Part shown: piece after piece, positions 1 through 60,053 of the stretch
Layout of the letters: the number at the start of each line of letters is the position of its first letter
Numbering within the stretch: position 1 is the stretch's first letter
NCBI RefSeq assembly: GCF_016469335.1
Contig: NZ_CP059888.1
Coordinates: 1,612,001-1,676,000, forward strand
DNA length: 64,000 nucleotides
From: Flocculibacter collagenilyticus
GTDB taxonomy: Bacteria; Pseudomonadota; Gammaproteobacteria; Enterobacterales; Alteromonadaceae
Reading direction: 5' to 3'
Translations under genes and position numbers: made by a program
The notes under the pieces: generated by a model
What the model saw: only the letters and a program-made list of their open reading frames with translations
What the model was told of the DNA's origin: nothing
Databases searched by the model: none

Positions 1-137
1 AGCATAATATTTTGAAACAGTTAAAATCTAGTGGGTTAATAAATACTATTCAAAATGTATATGTAACCGATTTGACGGTTGAATTTGTTGGCGCTAATCG
101 TGCTACGGTATTTGTTAAGCCTCAAAAAGGGTTTTGA
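1..137 (+). CDS. Partial cassette gene (C-terminal 44 residues), duplicate of 3421-3813
   Basis: The window opens inside a coding region. Reading from base 3 to the TGA at 135-137 gives 44 residues that match the C-terminus of the 130-residue secreted protein at 3421-3813, except for Thr-to-Ala and Glu-to-Gly changes. DNA identity continues through the following attC (only a few substitutions up to about 232), so the whole cassette is duplicated. The full protein has a signal peptide and no recognised domain. Function unknown. Confidence 0.85.
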   Translation, partial: HNILKQLKSSGLINTIQNVYVTDLTVEFVGANRATVFVKPQKGF

Positions 138-145
138 TAAAATAA

Positions 146-239
146 ACATAACAAAAACATCAAGTGGACATAAGTAGCTTGGCTCGCGCTTCGCGCAGTA
201 TAGCCAAACCATTTATGCCGCTTATATTAATAGTTAGGC
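146..239 (+). other. attC site of duplicated cassette 0
   Basis: R'' core ACATAAC at 146-152 and R' core GTTAGGC at 233-239. Between them are complementary arms (AAGTGGACATAA against TTATGCCGCTT, with an unpaired base, and a GGCT/AGCC inner stem around a CGCGCTTCGCG loop). This is the imperfect hairpin with extrahelical bases expected of an attC substrate of an integron integrase. Recombination cuts between G233 and T234. Confidence 0.9.
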
Positions 240-838: not shown

Positions 839-1186
839 ATGAAAACTTTTGGTACTATAATTCTAACCATAATTGGTGTAGCACTTTATATCCTCGCTGT
901 TCTTTATGGTAATGCAACATACTACTCATATTATTCTTGGACTATTATGCCTGCATTAGCGGCGATGTCTTCGGTAGGAATATTCTTTTATTTGGGTTAT
1001 AAAGTGTTTAAGAAATTACCGCCAATGTTTCTAAATAGTTATGATGCTGCTTCTTTGTCACACTTAAATTTAATTATTATGAATGACCAATGTGCTATTG
1101 ATGCGGCAATTGCAAATTACCATATAAAGGTTGATCTTAATTCAACCTTTACCCCGTTTTATGCACCATCGTGTTCCTACACATAA
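839..1186 (+). CDS. Cassette 2: hypothetical small membrane protein
   Basis: I chose the ATG at 839 because AGGAG lies 5 bp upstream. An in-frame ATG at 815 lies inside the R' core and would add 8 residues. The 115-residue product begins with two hydrophobic segments (about residues 4-24 and 28-52) and a short basic loop, then a soluble tail of about 60 residues. The TAA stop is part of the R'' core ACATAAC of its attC, which is interrupted by the IS element one base later. No family recognised. Confidence 0.7.
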   Translation: MKTFGTIILTIIGVALYILAVLYGNATYYSYYSWTIMPALAAMSSVGIFFYLGYKVFKKLPPMFLNSYDAASLSHLNLIIMNDQCAIDAAIANYHIKVDLNSTFTPFYAPSCSYT

Positions 1187-1192
1187 CACATA

Positions 1193-1203
1193 TGAACCTT
1201 CTC
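1193..1203. repeat. Subterminal inverted repeat, left, IS copy 1
   Basis: TGAACCTTCTC is the exact inverse of GAGAAGGTTCA at 2764-2774. It lies 5 bp inside the left boundary. Subterminal rather than terminal repeats separate IS1111 types from classic DDE insertion sequences. Confidence 0.85.
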
Positions 1204-1661
1204 GGGTCAAGTAAGCATAACGATTCTTTTTAGCTGCTTTTAAGCAGCTAATTTGTTTTAGCAATCTTTTAAATCTATTCAACTTCGCTATGTCGGGTAG
1301 CCGTTAAAATCGTTTACGGCAAACACATATTGAGGCTCTCTTATTGCGAGCTCATCGCTGCCTAAATCAGTCGATACAGCTGTCGTTTAGGGGCACTAGA
1401 CATTCATCGGTTAACCTTAGTCTGGCACTACTCAAGGGGATGGCTCTTTCGTCCAGTTAGTTAAAGGCTCAGCTAAGGTGCAAACGATTTAATGCATTGC
1501 TTAAATTAATGCGCACCAATGGGGTGTCTAATCAAGGCCAAATAGCTTATTACTTCGACAATACTTACCTGTAACGTTCAACTTTTGCTGACTTAAACAC
1601 AAATAGTACATGGTTGTTCATGGCTATCTAGTTAGGTATAGAGCTCATCCCATTGTGCGAC
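1204..1661 (-). ncRNA. Candidate guide (bridge/seek) RNA region of IS copy 1
   Basis: This 458-bp stretch downstream of the transposase has no plausible open frame and is conserved at all but three positions in the second copy. IS110-family elements are known to use an RNA from a non-coding end to pair with target and donor DNA, and IS1111 members place it downstream of the transposase. Local foldable structure includes a hairpin at 1230-1251 (ten-base arms) and another at 1300-1320 (GCCGTTAAA/TTTACGGC with one bulge). The string AACACATAT at 1322-1330 repeats the left element junction at 1185-1193, a possible donor-recognition segment. RNA ends, strand and guide loops are inferred. Confidence 0.55.
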
Positions 1662-2705
1662 TTAACTTTTTAAAAATCGATCATCATCAAATACCGTTTT
1701 GTTTTTCAACATGAAATAAACACAACGACCAAGCTTATGAGCAAGCACAGATAATGCTTTGGCTTTACTCATACGTTTTTGTAGCTTGTTTAAATAACGC
1801 CTTGCTTTGTCGTTTCCACGTAAATAAAGCACTGCGGCTTCACTGAACGCCCATTTTAAGTGACCATTGCCAATCTTGTTGCCGCTAGTGCCATAAGTTT
1901 TGCCAGCAGATTCCGCTTTACACTTTACAAGCCGACAATAAGACGAAAACTTTTGTACAGACTCAAATCGATTAATGTCACCAATTTCATACAAGATAGT
2001 CATCGCTAGAATGAGACCAATGCCAGGTATAGTACGTAGCTGTGCGTAATAGTTTGGTTGATGCTTTTTAGCTTTACTCTCTAAATAGTATTCAAGCTTT
2101 TTAAGTTCCTCGGCGTAGGCATCGAGGATGGCTAAATCAAAATTGACATTGCGTTGAACAGCTTGGTCGTCAAAACGCGTTTGAAACTCTTGGCGAACAC
2201 ATTTGTTTTTCATATGCAGTTCAAGAGGCGGATAGTTGTATTGGCTGTTTGTATTAACAATATGCGCTTTAAGTTGCGCACCATGTTGAACAAGCCGTGT
2301 TCTTCTACGAAGTAAATCACGAGTTGAGCGCATTTGAGCAGGATAATTGTAAGCCAGTGGAAAGTTGCCTCCACGCAATAGGCTAGCAATTTTATAAGAA
2401 TCAATCTTATCGTTTTTGGCTTTACCACCGTGAATGGCTTTCATGTACAGCGCATGACCAAGTACAAAATCGATATTATGCTCGGCACATAAATCACTGA
2501 CCCAATACCAGCAATGCATGCATTCAACACCAACAACAATATCTTCAAGATAAGGTAAAATCAGTTTAAGTAATTCATGTTTATCGGCTTTTATTTTCTG
2601 ATGAACAAGCTTACTGCCACGCTCATCAAGAATGCAAACGTATAAAATGCGTGCATGAAGGTCAATTCCACAATAATATTTGTTGAAAGTAGTATAGAAT
2701 TTCAT
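1662..2705 (-). CDS. IS110/IS1111-family transposase, copy 1
   Basis: A 347-residue DEDD recombinase. The N-terminal RuvC-like DEDD_Tnp_IS110 domain shows Asp15 (in GIDLH), Glu61 (GVECMHCW), Asp99 and Asp102 (KNDKID). The C-terminal Transposase_20 domain begins near LRTIPGIG and has the GTSGNKIGNGHLKWAF stretch that normally carries the catalytic serine. The ATG has a clear AGGAG upstream on the minus strand. The gene runs opposite to the cassettes. It differs from copy 2 at one residue (Ala40 here, Val in copy 2). These enzymes excise a circular form and reinsert it under RNA guidance. Confidence 0.95.
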   Translation of the reverse strand: MKFYTTFNKYYCGIDLHARILYVCILDERGSKLVHQKIKADKHELLKLILPYLEDIVVGVECMHCWYWVSDLCAEHNIDFVLGHALYMKAIHGGKAKNDKIDSYKIASLLRGGNFPLAYNYPAQMRSTRDLLRRRTRLVQHGAQLKAHIVNTNSQYNYPPLELHMKNKCVRQEFQTRFDDQAVQRNVNFDLAILDAYAEELKKLEYYLESKAKKHQPNYYAQLRTIPGIGLILAMTILYEIGDINRFESVQKFSSYCRLVKCKAESAGKTYGTSGNKIGNGHLKWAFSEAAVLYLRGNDKARRYLNKLQKRMSKAKALSVLAHKLGRCVYFMLKNKTVFDDDRFLKS

Positions 2706-2735
2706 TGAGCTTTCTCCTTTTGGTTTGGTCGCCTT

Positions 2736-2760
2736 GAAGTTTAGCTGTTCGCTAAACTTC
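2736..2760. promoter_or_regulatory. Perfect hairpin between transposase start and element end
   Basis: GAAGTTTAGC and GCTAAACTTC form a 10-bp perfect stem with a 5-base loop, 30 bp upstream of the transposase start on its transcribed strand. It recurs in copy 2 at 59910-59934. Possible roles are a block on outside transcription entering the transposase gene, or part of end recognition. Neither can be settled from sequence. Confidence 0.5.
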
Positions 2761-2763
2761 GGG

Positions 2764-2774
2764 GAGAAGGTTCA
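2764..2774. repeat. Subterminal inverted repeat, right, IS copy 1
   Basis: GAGAAGGTTCA is the inverse of the left repeat at 1193-1203 and lies 9 bp inside the right boundary. The unequal offsets (5 and 9 bp) match the asymmetric ends of IS1111-type elements. Confidence 0.85.
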
Positions 2775-2783
2775 ATAAGTATC

Positions 2784-3420: not shown

Positions 3421-3813
3421 ATGAAACTTTTAACTTTTTTATTTGTGTTTACGATTTTCTCCAGCTTGTTGTATGCAAATTCTATCGAAAGCTTTAATCG
3501 AATTGAGGTTAATCCATATGATGATTCCGCACATAAGGTCATTGCCTCAATTCATTTAGTTGTGGATTCTCCTCTTGCTGACGCAGCAGATGTTTTGGCT
3601 GCCAGAGAGATTATTGCAATATCTTTGAGCTCATTGTCATTACAAGAGTTAACAAAGAATGGAATTGATAATGCCAAGCATAATATTTTGAAACAGTTAA
3701 AGTCTAGTGGGTTAATAAATACTATTCAAAATGTATATGTAACCGATTTGACGGTTGAATTTGTTGGCGCTAATCGTACTACGGTATTTGTTAAGCCTCA
3801 AAAAGAGTTTTGA
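3421..3813 (+). CDS. Cassette 4: hypothetical secreted protein
   Basis: The 130-residue product starts at an ATG preceded by AAAGGAG. Residues 1-19 form a signal peptide (hydrophobic core LLTFLFVFTIFSSLLYA, cleavage likely after YANS), so it is exported. The mature part of about 110 residues has alternating hydrophobic strands and no motif I recognise. A second copy of this cassette lies at the left edge of the window (1-233), two residues different over the visible 44. Function unknown. Confidence 0.8.
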   Translation: MKLLTFLFVFTIFSSLLYANSIESFNRIEVNPYDDSAHKVIASIHLVVDSPLADAADVLAAREIIAISLSSLSLQELTKNGIDNAKHNILKQLKSSGLINTIQNVYVTDLTVEFVGANRTTVFVKPQKEF

Positions 3814-3821
3814 TAAAATAA

Positions 3822-3915
3822 ACATAACAAAAACATCAAGTGGACATAAATAGCTTGGCTCGCGCTTCGCGCAGTATAGCCAAACCATTTATGCCGCTTA
3901 TATTAATATTTATGT
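3822..3915 (+). other. attC of cassette 4 with a mutated R' core
   Basis: Same attC as at 146-239 with only a few substitutions, R'' ACATAAC at 3822-3828. The R' core reads TTTATGT (3909-3915), so the invariant G at the cut site is T. This should impair recombination there and may lock cassettes 4 and 5 together. Confidence 0.8.
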
Positions 3916-47739: not shown

Positions 47740-47816
<77 letters not shown>

Positions 47817-47861
47817 TCCGAATGATATAGCCCTAAAAGTTTTAATTCATTTTAGAAGAAT

Positions 47862-47938
<77 letters not shown>

Positions 47939-47983
47939 TCCGAATGATATAGCCCTAAAAGTTTTAATTCATTTTAGAAGAAT

Positions 47984-48060
<77 letters not shown>

Positions 48061-48104
48061 TCCGAATGATAAGCCCTAAAAGTTTTAATTCATTTTAGAA
48101 GAAT

Positions 48105-48181
<77 letters not shown>

Positions 48182-57625: not shown

Positions 57626-58360
57626 ATGGATTGGAAATTTTGGTCGTTCTTAGTTGCTTTTGTTGCATTGATTTTGTCTCAACTCCCACCGATTAGACTT
57701 TGGTTTAAAAAAGCCAAGTTGGATCTTGAACTGTATTCAAGAGTTCATATAACACACAAAGTTGGAAACCCTAATATTCAAACACATCTCATTTTAAGAA
57801 ACATTGGTGGCCGTAATACTAGAATTAAAGAAATTAGTATTGATATAGAAAGAGATGGTAAATTTTTAGATACATTAATTGCACAAAATTACCTACCTGA
57901 TGCATTGAACAATCAAAGCGTTTTATTTACAAATTTCTCACTTTCTCCAAATGATGAGTGGTCAAATAGGGTTAACTTGTTGAATTATTTTGACAGAGAA
58001 GAAGAGAAGTCATTTAAAGCTTCTGAGAAAGCTTTGAGAGAGGAAATAATAAGATTAAGAGAACCATTAAAAGATGGTGATAAAACCAACGTAAAAGTTA
58101 CAGACCAATTTGTTGAACCATTTACCCAAATGTTCAAAAATAAGTTTATATGGAAACCAGGAGACTATCAGTTTCATATAAATGTTAAAACACTCGACCA
58201 AAAAGCTGATATAAAAAAATCATTTAGGTTTATCTTATTTGAGTCTCAATCTGAAGATTTAGAGTCATATGTTAAAGACTTTAATATAGGCGCAGGTATT
58301 TCTTATGATGTTAATGATCATAGTGGTGTCTTAGTGCAGGTAGAAGAAATATCCGGCTAA
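57626..58360 (+). CDS. Cassette R5: hypothetical membrane-anchored protein
   Basis: 244 residues. An N-terminal helix (about residues 5-25, FWSFLVAFVALILSQL) anchors a soluble beta-rich domain. No motif recognised. AAGGAG precedes the ATG. The stop TAA lies within R'' GGCTAAC, the match of the start GTTAGCC. The second IS copy is inserted one base later. Confidence 0.75.
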   Translation: MDWKFWSFLVAFVALILSQLPPIRLWFKKAKLDLELYSRVHITHKVGNPNIQTHLILRNIGGRNTRIKEISIDIERDGKFLDTLIAQNYLPDALNNQSVLFTNFSLSPNDEWSNRVNLLNYFDREEEKSFKASEKALREEIIRLREPLKDGDKTNVKVTDQFVEPFTQMFKNKFIWKPGDYQFHINVKTLDQKADIKKSFRFILFESQSEDLESYVKDFNIGAGISYDVNDHSGVLVQVEEISG

Positions 58361-58377
58361 CACATATGAACCTTCTC

Positions 58378-58835
58378 GGGTCAAGTAAGCATAACGATTC
58401 TTTTTAGCTGCTTTTAAGCAGCTAATTTGTTTTAGCAATGTTTTAAATCTATTCAACTTCGCTATGTCGGGTAGCCGTTAAAATCGTTTACGGCAAACAC
58501 ATATTGAGGCTCTCTTATTGCGAGCTCATCGCTGCCTAAATCAGTCGATACAGCTGTCGTTTAGGGGCACTAGACATTTATCGGTTAACCTTAGTCTGGC
58601 ACTACTCAAGGGGATGGCTCTTTCGTCCAGTTAGTTAAAGGCTCAGCTAAGGTGTAAACGATTTAATGCATTGCTTAAATTAATGCGCACCAATGGGGTG
58701 TCTAATCAAGGCCAAATAGCTTATTACTTCGACAATACTTACCTGTAACGTTCAACTTTTGCTGACTTAAACACAAATAGTACATGGTTGTTCATGGCTA
58801 TCTAGTTAGGTATAGAGCTCATCCCATTGTGCGAC
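58378..58835 (-). ncRNA. Candidate guide (bridge/seek) RNA region of IS copy 2
   Basis: Same 458-bp non-coding stretch as at 1204-1661. The hairpins corresponding to 1230-1251 and 1300-1320 and the AACACATAT string are intact. Three single-base differences lie outside those parts. Confidence 0.5.
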
Positions 58836-59879
58836 TTAACTTTTTAAAAATCGATCATCATCAAATACCGTTTTGTTTTTCAACATGAAATAAACACAAC
58901 GACCAAGCTTATGAGCAAGCACAGATAATGCTTTGGCTTTACTCATACGTTTTTGTAGCTTGTTTAAATAACGCCTTGCTTTGTCGTTTCCACGTAAATA
59001 AAGCACTGCGGCTTCACTGAACGCCCATTTTAAGTGACCATTGCCAATCTTGTTGCCGCTAGTGCCATAAGTTTTGCCAGCAGATTCCGCTTTACACTTT
59101 ACAAGCCGACAATAAGACGAAAACTTTTGTACAGACTCAAATCGATTAATGTCACCAATTTCATACAAGATAGTCATCGCTAGAATGAGACCAATGCCAG
59201 GTATAGTACGTAGCTGTGCGTAATAGTTTGGTTGATGCTTTTTAGCTTTACTCTCTAAATAGTATTCAAGCTTTTTAAGTTCCTCGGCGTAGGCATCGAG
59301 GATGGCTAAATCAAAATTGACATTGCGTTGAACAGCTTGGTCGTCAAAACGCGTTTGAAACTCTTGGCGAACACATTTGTTTTTCATATGCAGTTCAAGA
59401 GGCGGATAGTTGTATTGGCTGTTTGTATTAACAATATGCGCTTTAAGTTGCGCACCATGTTGAACAAGCCGTGTTCTTCTACGAAGTAAATCACGAGTTG
59501 AGCGCATTTGAGCAGGATAATTGTAAGCCAGTGGAAAGTTGCCTCCACGCAATAGGCTAGCAATTTTATAAGAATCAATCTTATCGTTTTTGGCTTTACC
59601 ACCGTGAATGGCTTTCATGTACAGCGCATGACCAAGTACAAAATCGATATTATGCTCGGCACATAAATCACTGACCCAATACCAGCAATGCATGCATTCA
59701 ACACCAACAACAATATCTTCAAGATAAGGTAAAATCAGTTTAAGTAATTCATGTTTATCGACTTTTATTTTCTGATGAACAAGCTTACTGCCACGCTCAT
59801 CAAGAATGCAAACGTATAAAATGCGTGCATGAAGGTCAATTCCACAATAATATTTGTTGAAAGTAGTATAGAATTTCAT
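58836..59879 (-). CDS. IS110/IS1111-family transposase, copy 2
   Basis: 347-residue DEDD recombinase, one residue different from copy 1 (Val40). Asp15, Glu61, Asp99, Asp102 and the Ser-containing GTSGNKIGNGH region are all kept, so it is probably active. Same upstream hairpin (59910-59934) and ribosome site. Confidence 0.95.
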   Translation of the reverse strand: MKFYTTFNKYYCGIDLHARILYVCILDERGSKLVHQKIKVDKHELLKLILPYLEDIVVGVECMHCWYWVSDLCAEHNIDFVLGHALYMKAIHGGKAKNDKIDSYKIASLLRGGNFPLAYNYPAQMRSTRDLLRRRTRLVQHGAQLKAHIVNTNSQYNYPPLELHMKNKCVRQEFQTRFDDQAVQRNVNFDLAILDAYAEELKKLEYYLESKAKKHQPNYYAQLRTIPGIGLILAMTILYEIGDINRFESVQKFSSYCRLVKCKAESAGKTYGTSGNKIGNGHLKWAFSEAAVLYLRGNDKARRYLNKLQKRMSKAKALSVLAHKLGRCVYFMLKNKTVFDDDRFLKS

Positions 59880-59957
59880 TGAGCTTTCTCCTTTTGGTTT
59901 GGTCGCCTTGAAGTTTAGCTGTTCGCTAAACTTCGGGGAGAAGGTTCAATAAGTATC

Positions 59958-60053
59958 AAGCTAATTAAAGTGGACAAATAACAGCTTGGCTTTTGTTCAC
60001 TCCGTTCACTATTTTAGCCAAGTATTATTTGCCCATTATTGTGGGCGTTAGGC
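59958..60053 (+). other. Distal part of the IS-interrupted attC of R5
   Basis: The R'' half is at 58355-58361 (GGCTAAC). The rest resumes with AAG, then stem AGCTTGGCT/AGCCAAGT around TTTGTTCACTCCGTTCACTATTT, and R' GTTAGGC at 60047-60053. Confidence 0.85.

What the first reader, a model, noticed from the sequence alone, without database searches (positions are those of the whole stretch)
1188..2783. IS1111-type element inserted at a fixed point of attC, with a likely guide RNA
Seen: the element sits between AAC and AAG directly after the R'' core of a cassette attC, and deleting it rebuilds the usual TAACAAG. The ~460-bp non-coding tail downstream of the transposase is nearly identical in both copies. 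Known: IS110/IS1111 transposases use a guide RNA for target choice, and IS1111-attC elements insert in attC. Inference: this RNA reads the R'' core, so the element can spread through the whole array because every cassette carries the target.
Basis: partly seen in the sequence, partly recalled or inferred. Interest (0 to 1): 0.85.

Follow-up and report, generated by a model that had tools for sequence, protein, structure and literature searches.

The report
attC-targeting IS with double-loop guide RNA
A jumping gene inserted in integron gene-cassette attachment sites appears to carry a large structured guide RNA with two loops that read the attachment site and one that reads its own end, and it belongs to a transposase lineage far from ISPa21, a known element that hits the same site.

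Summary
A 1,596-bp IS1111-type element (1188-2783; second copy 58362-59957, 4 differences) sits between AAC and AAG at the R'' end of attC; removing it rebuilds TAACAAG. Insertion of IS1111 elements in attC, and guide RNAs for two of them (ISKpn4, ISPst6), are already published, so the broad idea is known. What looks new: (1) this transposase shares only ~17% identity with ISPa21, a known attC-targeting element inserted at the same end of attC, so two distant lineages hit the same site; the relatives in this clade with both ends found (mostly marine gammaproteobacteria) nearly all sit at TT|GTTA, mostly in attC. (2) The ~460-nt tail encodes a strongly covarying RNA with three domains. Domains I and II each hold CUAAC (pairs with GTTAG) and CUUG (matches CTT|G), i.e. 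two target-reading loops. Domain III holds AUAUGUG, which matches the right end and changes with it (T/G/A). (3) Distant relatives with other targets keep the two-module layout with guides fitting their own targets (0 of 50,000 permutations). RNA expression, transposition and the need for two loops are untested. Verdict: new variant of a known kind.

The parts
1188..2783 (-). IS1111-type element, copy 1 (transposase orientation is -)
   Evidence: exact repeat with copy 2, ends and flanks
58362..59957 (-). same element, copy 2 (4 substitutions)
1662..2705 (-). transposase, 347 aa, DEDD + Transposase_20; D, E, D, D and S positions conserved in the alignment
58836..59879 (-). transposase of copy 2
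2763..2783 (-). left end GATACTTATTGAACCTTCTCC with subterminal inverted repeat
   Evidence: conserved in relatives
1188..1203 (-). right end GAGAAGGTTCATATGT with subterminal inverted repeat
   Evidence: conserved in relatives
1511..1661 (-). RNA domain I: 15-bp lower stem, internal loop with target guides, hypervariable upper part
   Evidence: covariation, helices 1-4
1631..1635 (-). right-target guide 1, CUAAC, complementary to GTTAG
   Evidence: TAAC invariant in 52 of 52
1533..1536 (-). left-target guide 1, CUUG (in UUUGGCCUUG), same sequence as CTT|G
   Evidence: TTGATTA block invariant or nearly so in 52 relatives
1413..1480 (-). RNA domain II: second target module
   Evidence: covariation, helices 7-9
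1456..1460 (-). right-target guide 2, CUAAC
   Evidence: TAACTG invariant in 52 of 52
1433..1436 (-). left-target guide 2, CUUG
   Evidence: TTG invariant in 52 of 52
1319..1408 (-). RNA domain III: donor module
   Evidence: covariation, helices 10-13
1324..1330 (-). left-donor guide AUAUGUG, same sequence as right end ATATGT|G; its position -3 changes together with the right end (T/G/A)
1181..1187 (+). R'' end of the interrupted attC, copy 1 (ACATAAC); attC continues at 2784, R'-like GGCGTTA at about 2881
58355..58361 (+). R'' end of the interrupted attC, copy 2 (GGCTAAC); attC continues at 59958, R'-like GGCGTTA at about 60044

Best explanation
This is an autonomous IS1111-type element whose DEDD recombinase is guided by a ~410-nt RNA transcribed from the tail downstream of tnp. 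The RNA has three stem-loop domains. Domains I and II each display a target module of the form [right guide]-UGG-stem-CCA-[left guide]; [quoted passage not shown] with the R'' end of attC. Domain III displays AUAUGUG, which pairs with the element's right end, and its next bases match the target, like the handshake guides of IS621. The circle formed from the abutted ends is recombined into CTT|GTTA, giving a fixed position and orientation in attC. Shown here: structure conservation, guide-DNA matches, matching natural changes. Inferred: RNA expression, complex formation, transposition, and that both target loops are used.
For: Fixed insertion point in all three near-complete own copies. In nearly all relatives where both ends were found the junction is TT|GTTA: over 68 sites, T at -2 in 67 and at -1 in 68, G at +1 in 67, T at +2 and +3 in 68, A at +4 in 66. 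attC hallmarks at these sites: AACGYY upstream in 47 of 65 against 4 of 65 in the right flank, GTC at the L'' position in 47 of 65 against 0. RNA: 92.9% of cells paired in the model structure, 58 of 101 pairs with changes on both sides, covariation score 0.359 against 0.162 shuffled (0 of 500), 31-40% paired when slid. Guide letters TAAC and TTG are invariant or nearly so in both modules among 52 sequences while the apical stems vary freely. The donor guide changes with the right end at position -3: T/T 63, G/G 6, A/A 2. Distant relatives (26-32% identity to this transposase where measured) with different targets carry guides fitting their own flanks, e.g. L163 right flank GACCCCGTT with AACGGGGUC and left flank GAGTCT|G with GAGUCUG, while L162, with a similar tail, has right flank GACCCTAA with UUGGGGUC. 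Own against swapped flanks: 145 against 116.9 +/- 5.7, 0 of 50,000 permutations; module 1 alone p 1e-4, module 2 alone p 2e-4. Right guide 5', left guide 3' is the IS1111 order reported for seekRNAs (PMC11187229). NCR-derived RNAs of ISKpn4 and ISPst6, which target attC, co-purify with their transposases (PMC11187229).
Against: No transcript data. Guides in this clade are short (5 nt right, 4-5 nt left). The right-donor guide could not be established: GAAUGUC pairs only partly with GATACT and mostly does not follow changes of the left end. In several distant relatives module 2 fits the target less well than module 1, and L165 and L161 fit poorly, so module 2 may be partly degenerate. Right ends with G or A at position -1 (L095, L103, L073) and L172 have an unmatched loop. 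The model structure was derived from largely the same sequences on which pairs were counted.
Confidence: 0.82

Rival explanations
1. Only one module (domain I) is the target-binding loop; domain II is a duplicated relic or a structural platform that keeps guide-like letters for another reason.
For: In distant relatives module 1 usually holds the longer and more variable match (L123, L124, L127, L131, L162, L163), and L162/L163, with similar tails, differ in module 1 guides but hardly in module 2.
Against: In the clade of this element the target letters TAAC and TTG of module 2 are invariant in 52 of 52 sequences; module 2 alone fits own targets better than swapped ones (p 2e-4), with the better match in L126 (right guide) and L164 (left guide).
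Confidence: 0.35
2. The tail yields two separate short seekRNAs, one per module, instead of one large RNA.
For: Published IS1111 seekRNAs are 70-100 nt with a longer precursor (PMC11187229); each module is about 70-150 nt.
Against: A long-range helix (alignment columns 205-224 with 477-498) encloses domains II and III and has two-sided changes, which argues that at least these two act in one RNA.
Confidence: 0.25
3. The element recognises the folded attC hairpin (like the integron integrase) or a protein-read site; the RNA match is incidental.
For: Most sites are attC.
Against: Only about 6-7 bp are constant at the sites; some copies lie at TT|GTT sites without recognisable attC (L110, L116/L117); relatives with other targets show matching guides.
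Confidence: 0.06
4. The tail is a conserved regulatory or messenger-protecting structure, not a guide.
For: Strong conserved structure alone would fit.
Against: Loop letters match target and right end and change with them.
Confidence: 0.04

Closest known systems
IS1111-attC group (ISPa21, ISKpn4, ISPst6, ISPa25; Tetu and Holmes 2008, Post and Hall 2009)
   Same: IS1111-type ends with subterminal inverted repeats, NCR downstream of tnp, insertion at the same end of attC in the same orientation (checked on ISPa21 in plasmid pME-1a)
   Different: Transposase only about 17% identical to ISPa21 (local BLAST 25% over 85 aa); NCR 474 nt against about 260 nt; two target modules, where only one is apparent by eye in ISPa21
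seekRNA of ISKpn4/ISPst6/ISEc11/ISPa11 (Siddiquee 2024, PMC11187229)
   Same: RNA from the NCR downstream of tnp; top-strand match 5' of bottom-strand match
   Different: Published seekRNAs are 70-100 nt (long form 154 nt in ISEc11) with one pair of matches; here a structure of about 410 nt with two pairs plus a donor guide
IS621 bridge RNA (Durrant 2024, PMC11208160; Hiraizumi 2024, PMC11208158)
   Same: Separate target- and donor-binding loops; extra bases of the donor loop matching the target resemble handshake guides
   Different: IS110 guide order is reversed and the RNA lies upstream of the recombinase; one target-binding loop there, two here

Membership tests
IS1111 group of the IS110 family | DEDD (RuvC-like) domain plus C-terminal PF02371 domain, 330-350 aa | tested here: met
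   PF01548 and PF02371 over cut-off, 347 aa
IS1111 group of the IS110 family | subterminal inverted repeats | tested here: met
   GAACCTTCTC/GAGAAGGTTC, 10 nt inside the left end and 6 nt inside the right end
IS1111 group of the IS110 family | long non-coding region downstream of tnp | tested here: met
   474 nt downstream, 78 nt upstream
IS1111 group of the IS110 family | C-terminal GL-P----S(T)G motif | tested here: inconclusive
   aligned serine present but the stretch reads RLVKCKAESAG
IS1111 group of the IS110 family | circular intermediate | not testable with these tools
   needs PCR of the end junction
IS1111-attC group | inserts at one fixed point of attC, one orientation | tested here: met
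   own copies and relatives; same end of attC as ISPa21
IS1111-attC group | transposase close to ISPst6/ISKpn4/ISPa21/ISPa25 | tested here: not met
   17% to ISPa21; the other members were not in hand; nearest plasmid hits outside the own clade are about 33%
bridge RNA / seekRNA systems | NCR RNA with guides to both strands of the target | tested here: met
   complementarity and own-against-swapped test
bridge RNA / seekRNA systems | guide to the donor end | tested here: inconclusive
   left-donor guide changes with the right end; right-donor guide not established
bridge RNA / seekRNA systems | RNA is expressed, binds the recombinase and is needed for transposition | not testable with these tools
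   no expression data

The most novel reading that the evidence does not exclude
A distinct lineage of IS1111 elements uses one large bridge-type RNA with two target-reading loops and one donor-reading loop; the pair of target loops may let one complex hold two target duplexes (for example two attC sites, or target and flanking site during excision) or tolerate varied targets, and attC targeting arose independently of the known IS1111-attC group.
Probability: 0.5. Interest if true: 0.72.

Novelty: new variant of a known kind. Interest (0 to 1): 0.56.

Why it matters
It gives a large natural data set in which RNA-guided recombinases of one lineage were re-aimed many times, with two target loops per RNA, an arrangement not found in the bridge-RNA and seekRNA papers read here. 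If both loops work, it bears on how IS1111 complexes pair DNA ends and offers a differently built programmable recombinase. It also suggests that integron attC sites were chosen as a landing site by at least two distant IS1111 lineages, which matters for cassette-array decay.

Tried and rejected
Rfam at gathering thresholds: no match in the element. Viral contigs: no relative. Testing attC by requiring R' to be the exact complement of R'' failed (2 of 68, no more than chance), probably because in arrays the outer bases of R' come from the next cassette; it was replaced by core motifs, chosen after seeing the sites. Blind search for long complementarity between this NCR and one target gave chance-level hits; the signal appears only through conservation and relatives. 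A right-donor guide (GAAUGUC against GATACT) was considered and left unestablished: L035 fits, but L037, L044, L073, L092, L102 and L110 do not. An early idea that UAAUAAG/AAGUAUUG were guides was dropped: that stretch is hypervariable across relatives. A dedicated covariance model was not built because three domains exceed the practical calibration size.

Full report
What is there. The window holds two copies of a 1,596-bp element (1188-2783 and 58362-59957) that differ at four positions. Each lies directly after the R'' end of a cassette attC, with AAC on one side and AAG on the other; joining the flanks rebuilds TAACAAG. The same genome (3.97 Mb, one contig) has a third copy at TTAAC|AAT with a deletion inside tnp, a truncated copy at ATAAC|, and a 71-bp remnant. 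The 347-aa transposase has the DEDD_Tnp_IS110 and Transposase_20 domains, the ends carry subterminal inverted repeats, and 474 nt of non-coding DNA lie downstream of tnp. By these features it is an IS1111-type element.

Relatives. A scan of species genomes gave 80 relatives of 63-94% identity, mostly in marine gammaproteobacteria; plasmid hits include decayed copies in Candidatus Manganitrophus, a nitrospirote. Then comes a gap: outside the clade the best plasmid hits are about 33%. Where both ends could be placed the junction reads, in transposase orientation, nTT|GATACT...CATATGT|GTTA with few departures; the search patterns for the ends allowed mismatches but did assume this general form. 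Over 68 sites the constant letters are TT|GTTA with C favoured at -3. The left flank has attC hallmarks: AACGYY upstream in 47 of 65 against 4 of 65 in the right flank, and GTC at the L'' position in 47 of 65 against none; 66 of 73 sites have at least one looser hallmark. A few sites, such as L110 and L116/L117, show no convincing attC but still have TT|GTT.

Relation to the published attC-targeting elements. ISPa21 was read from plasmid pME-1a, where it sits after the smr cassette (the record names it only as an IS110 family transposase, the name ISPa21 comes from the paper on that plasmid). It occupies the same end of attC in the same orientation, with the crossover within about 1-2 bp of this element's as far as the sequence allows. 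Its transposase shares 17% of aligned residues with the window's, as distant as IS4321 (19%). So attC was reached by two very distant IS1111 lineages.

The RNA. Aligning 68 tails gave a consensus fold with three domains. On a separately made alignment of 52 of these sequences, 92.9% of cells form standard pairs, 58 of 101 pairs have changes on both sides, and no shuffle reached the observed values; sliding the partners drops pairing to 31-40%. Domain I (window 1661-1511) and domain II (about 1480-1413) have the same plan: a lower stem, a 5' loop strand ending in CUAAC, an apical stem starting UGG and ending CCA (UAG/CUA in domain I of this element), and a 3' loop strand ending in CUUG. These guide letters are invariant or nearly so, while the apical parts are hypervariable. 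CUAAC is complementary to GTTAG on the right of the insertion point, CUUG equals CTT|G on the left: the R'' end of attC is read from both strands. Domain III (about 1408-1319) carries AUAUGUG, identical to the right end ATATGT|G.

Natural changes as the test. The third-last base of the right end is T, G or A; the loop of domain III has the same letter in 63, 6 and 2 elements respectively. More distant relatives (26-32% identical to this transposase where measured) have quite different targets, yet show the same two [guide]-UGG...CCA-[guide] modules at similar places in the tail. Their guides fit their own flanks: for ten lineages outside the clade the summed match to own flanks is 145 against 116.9 +/- 5.7 for swapped flanks, with none of 50,000 permutations reaching it; module 1 alone gives p 1e-4 and module 2 alone p 2e-4. 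Between similar tails the change is direct: L162/L163 and L127/L131 differ in target flank and in guide letters together. The bases after the left-donor guide (GUU, GUC or GAC) tend to equal the first bases of the target's right side, which resembles the handshake guides described for IS621 (PMC11208158); this was noted by eye, not tested statistically.

How it most likely works. The recombinase binds the large RNA; the target loops select CTT|GTTA, the donor loop selects the abutted ends of the excised circle, and recombination puts the element in one position and orientation at the R'' end of attC. The structure and the matches are computed results; expression, binding, transposition and the role of the second target loop are inference. 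The effect on cassette recombination is unknown; insertion separates R'' from the rest of attC, so loss of that attC is likely. No intact integron integrase was found in this genome (best match 82 bits against a cut-off of 265, with a stop), so the arrays look like cassette clusters without an integrase.

Weak points. Guides in this clade are short; the right-donor guide is not established; some relatives fit poorly; sequences are related, so counts of elements overstate independent events (the G and A changes at the right end may be one event each). The structure was derived from sequences that are also counted. The idea of the guides was formed on the same data before the permutation test, although that test searched the tails blindly. 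The literature held here is partial: the 2008 paper on the IS1111-attC group could not be read, so whether any member of this clade was already listed there is unknown.

Noticed in passing
window 1-236 and 3677-3912: A cassette stretch with its attC is duplicated at 98% identity on either side of the element.
   Followed up: no
window 47743-48181 (-): Four tandem tRNA genes in 122-nt repeats.
   Followed up: no
G000:C1:3139222-3139461 (L105): Only a 5' remnant of an integron integrase gene with an internal stop, plus C-terminal scraps near 2.62 Mb; the cassette arrays seem to lack a working integrase.
   Followed up: partly
G000:C1:1517337-1517407 (L011:7337-7407): A 71-bp right-end remnant of the element next to GTTAC, apparently not within a cassette array.
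   Followed up: partly
L010:14497-15651: A second IS110-type transposase (384 aa) a few hundred bases from the third copy.
   Followed up: no
L116, L117, L118: Plasmids of Candidatus Manganitrophus (Nitrospirota) carry decayed members of the clade with right end TATAAGT and matching loop AAUAAGUG.
   Followed up: partly
window 58354-58361: The stop codon of the 244-aa cassette ORF overlaps the R'' end used as target by copy 2.
   Followed up: no
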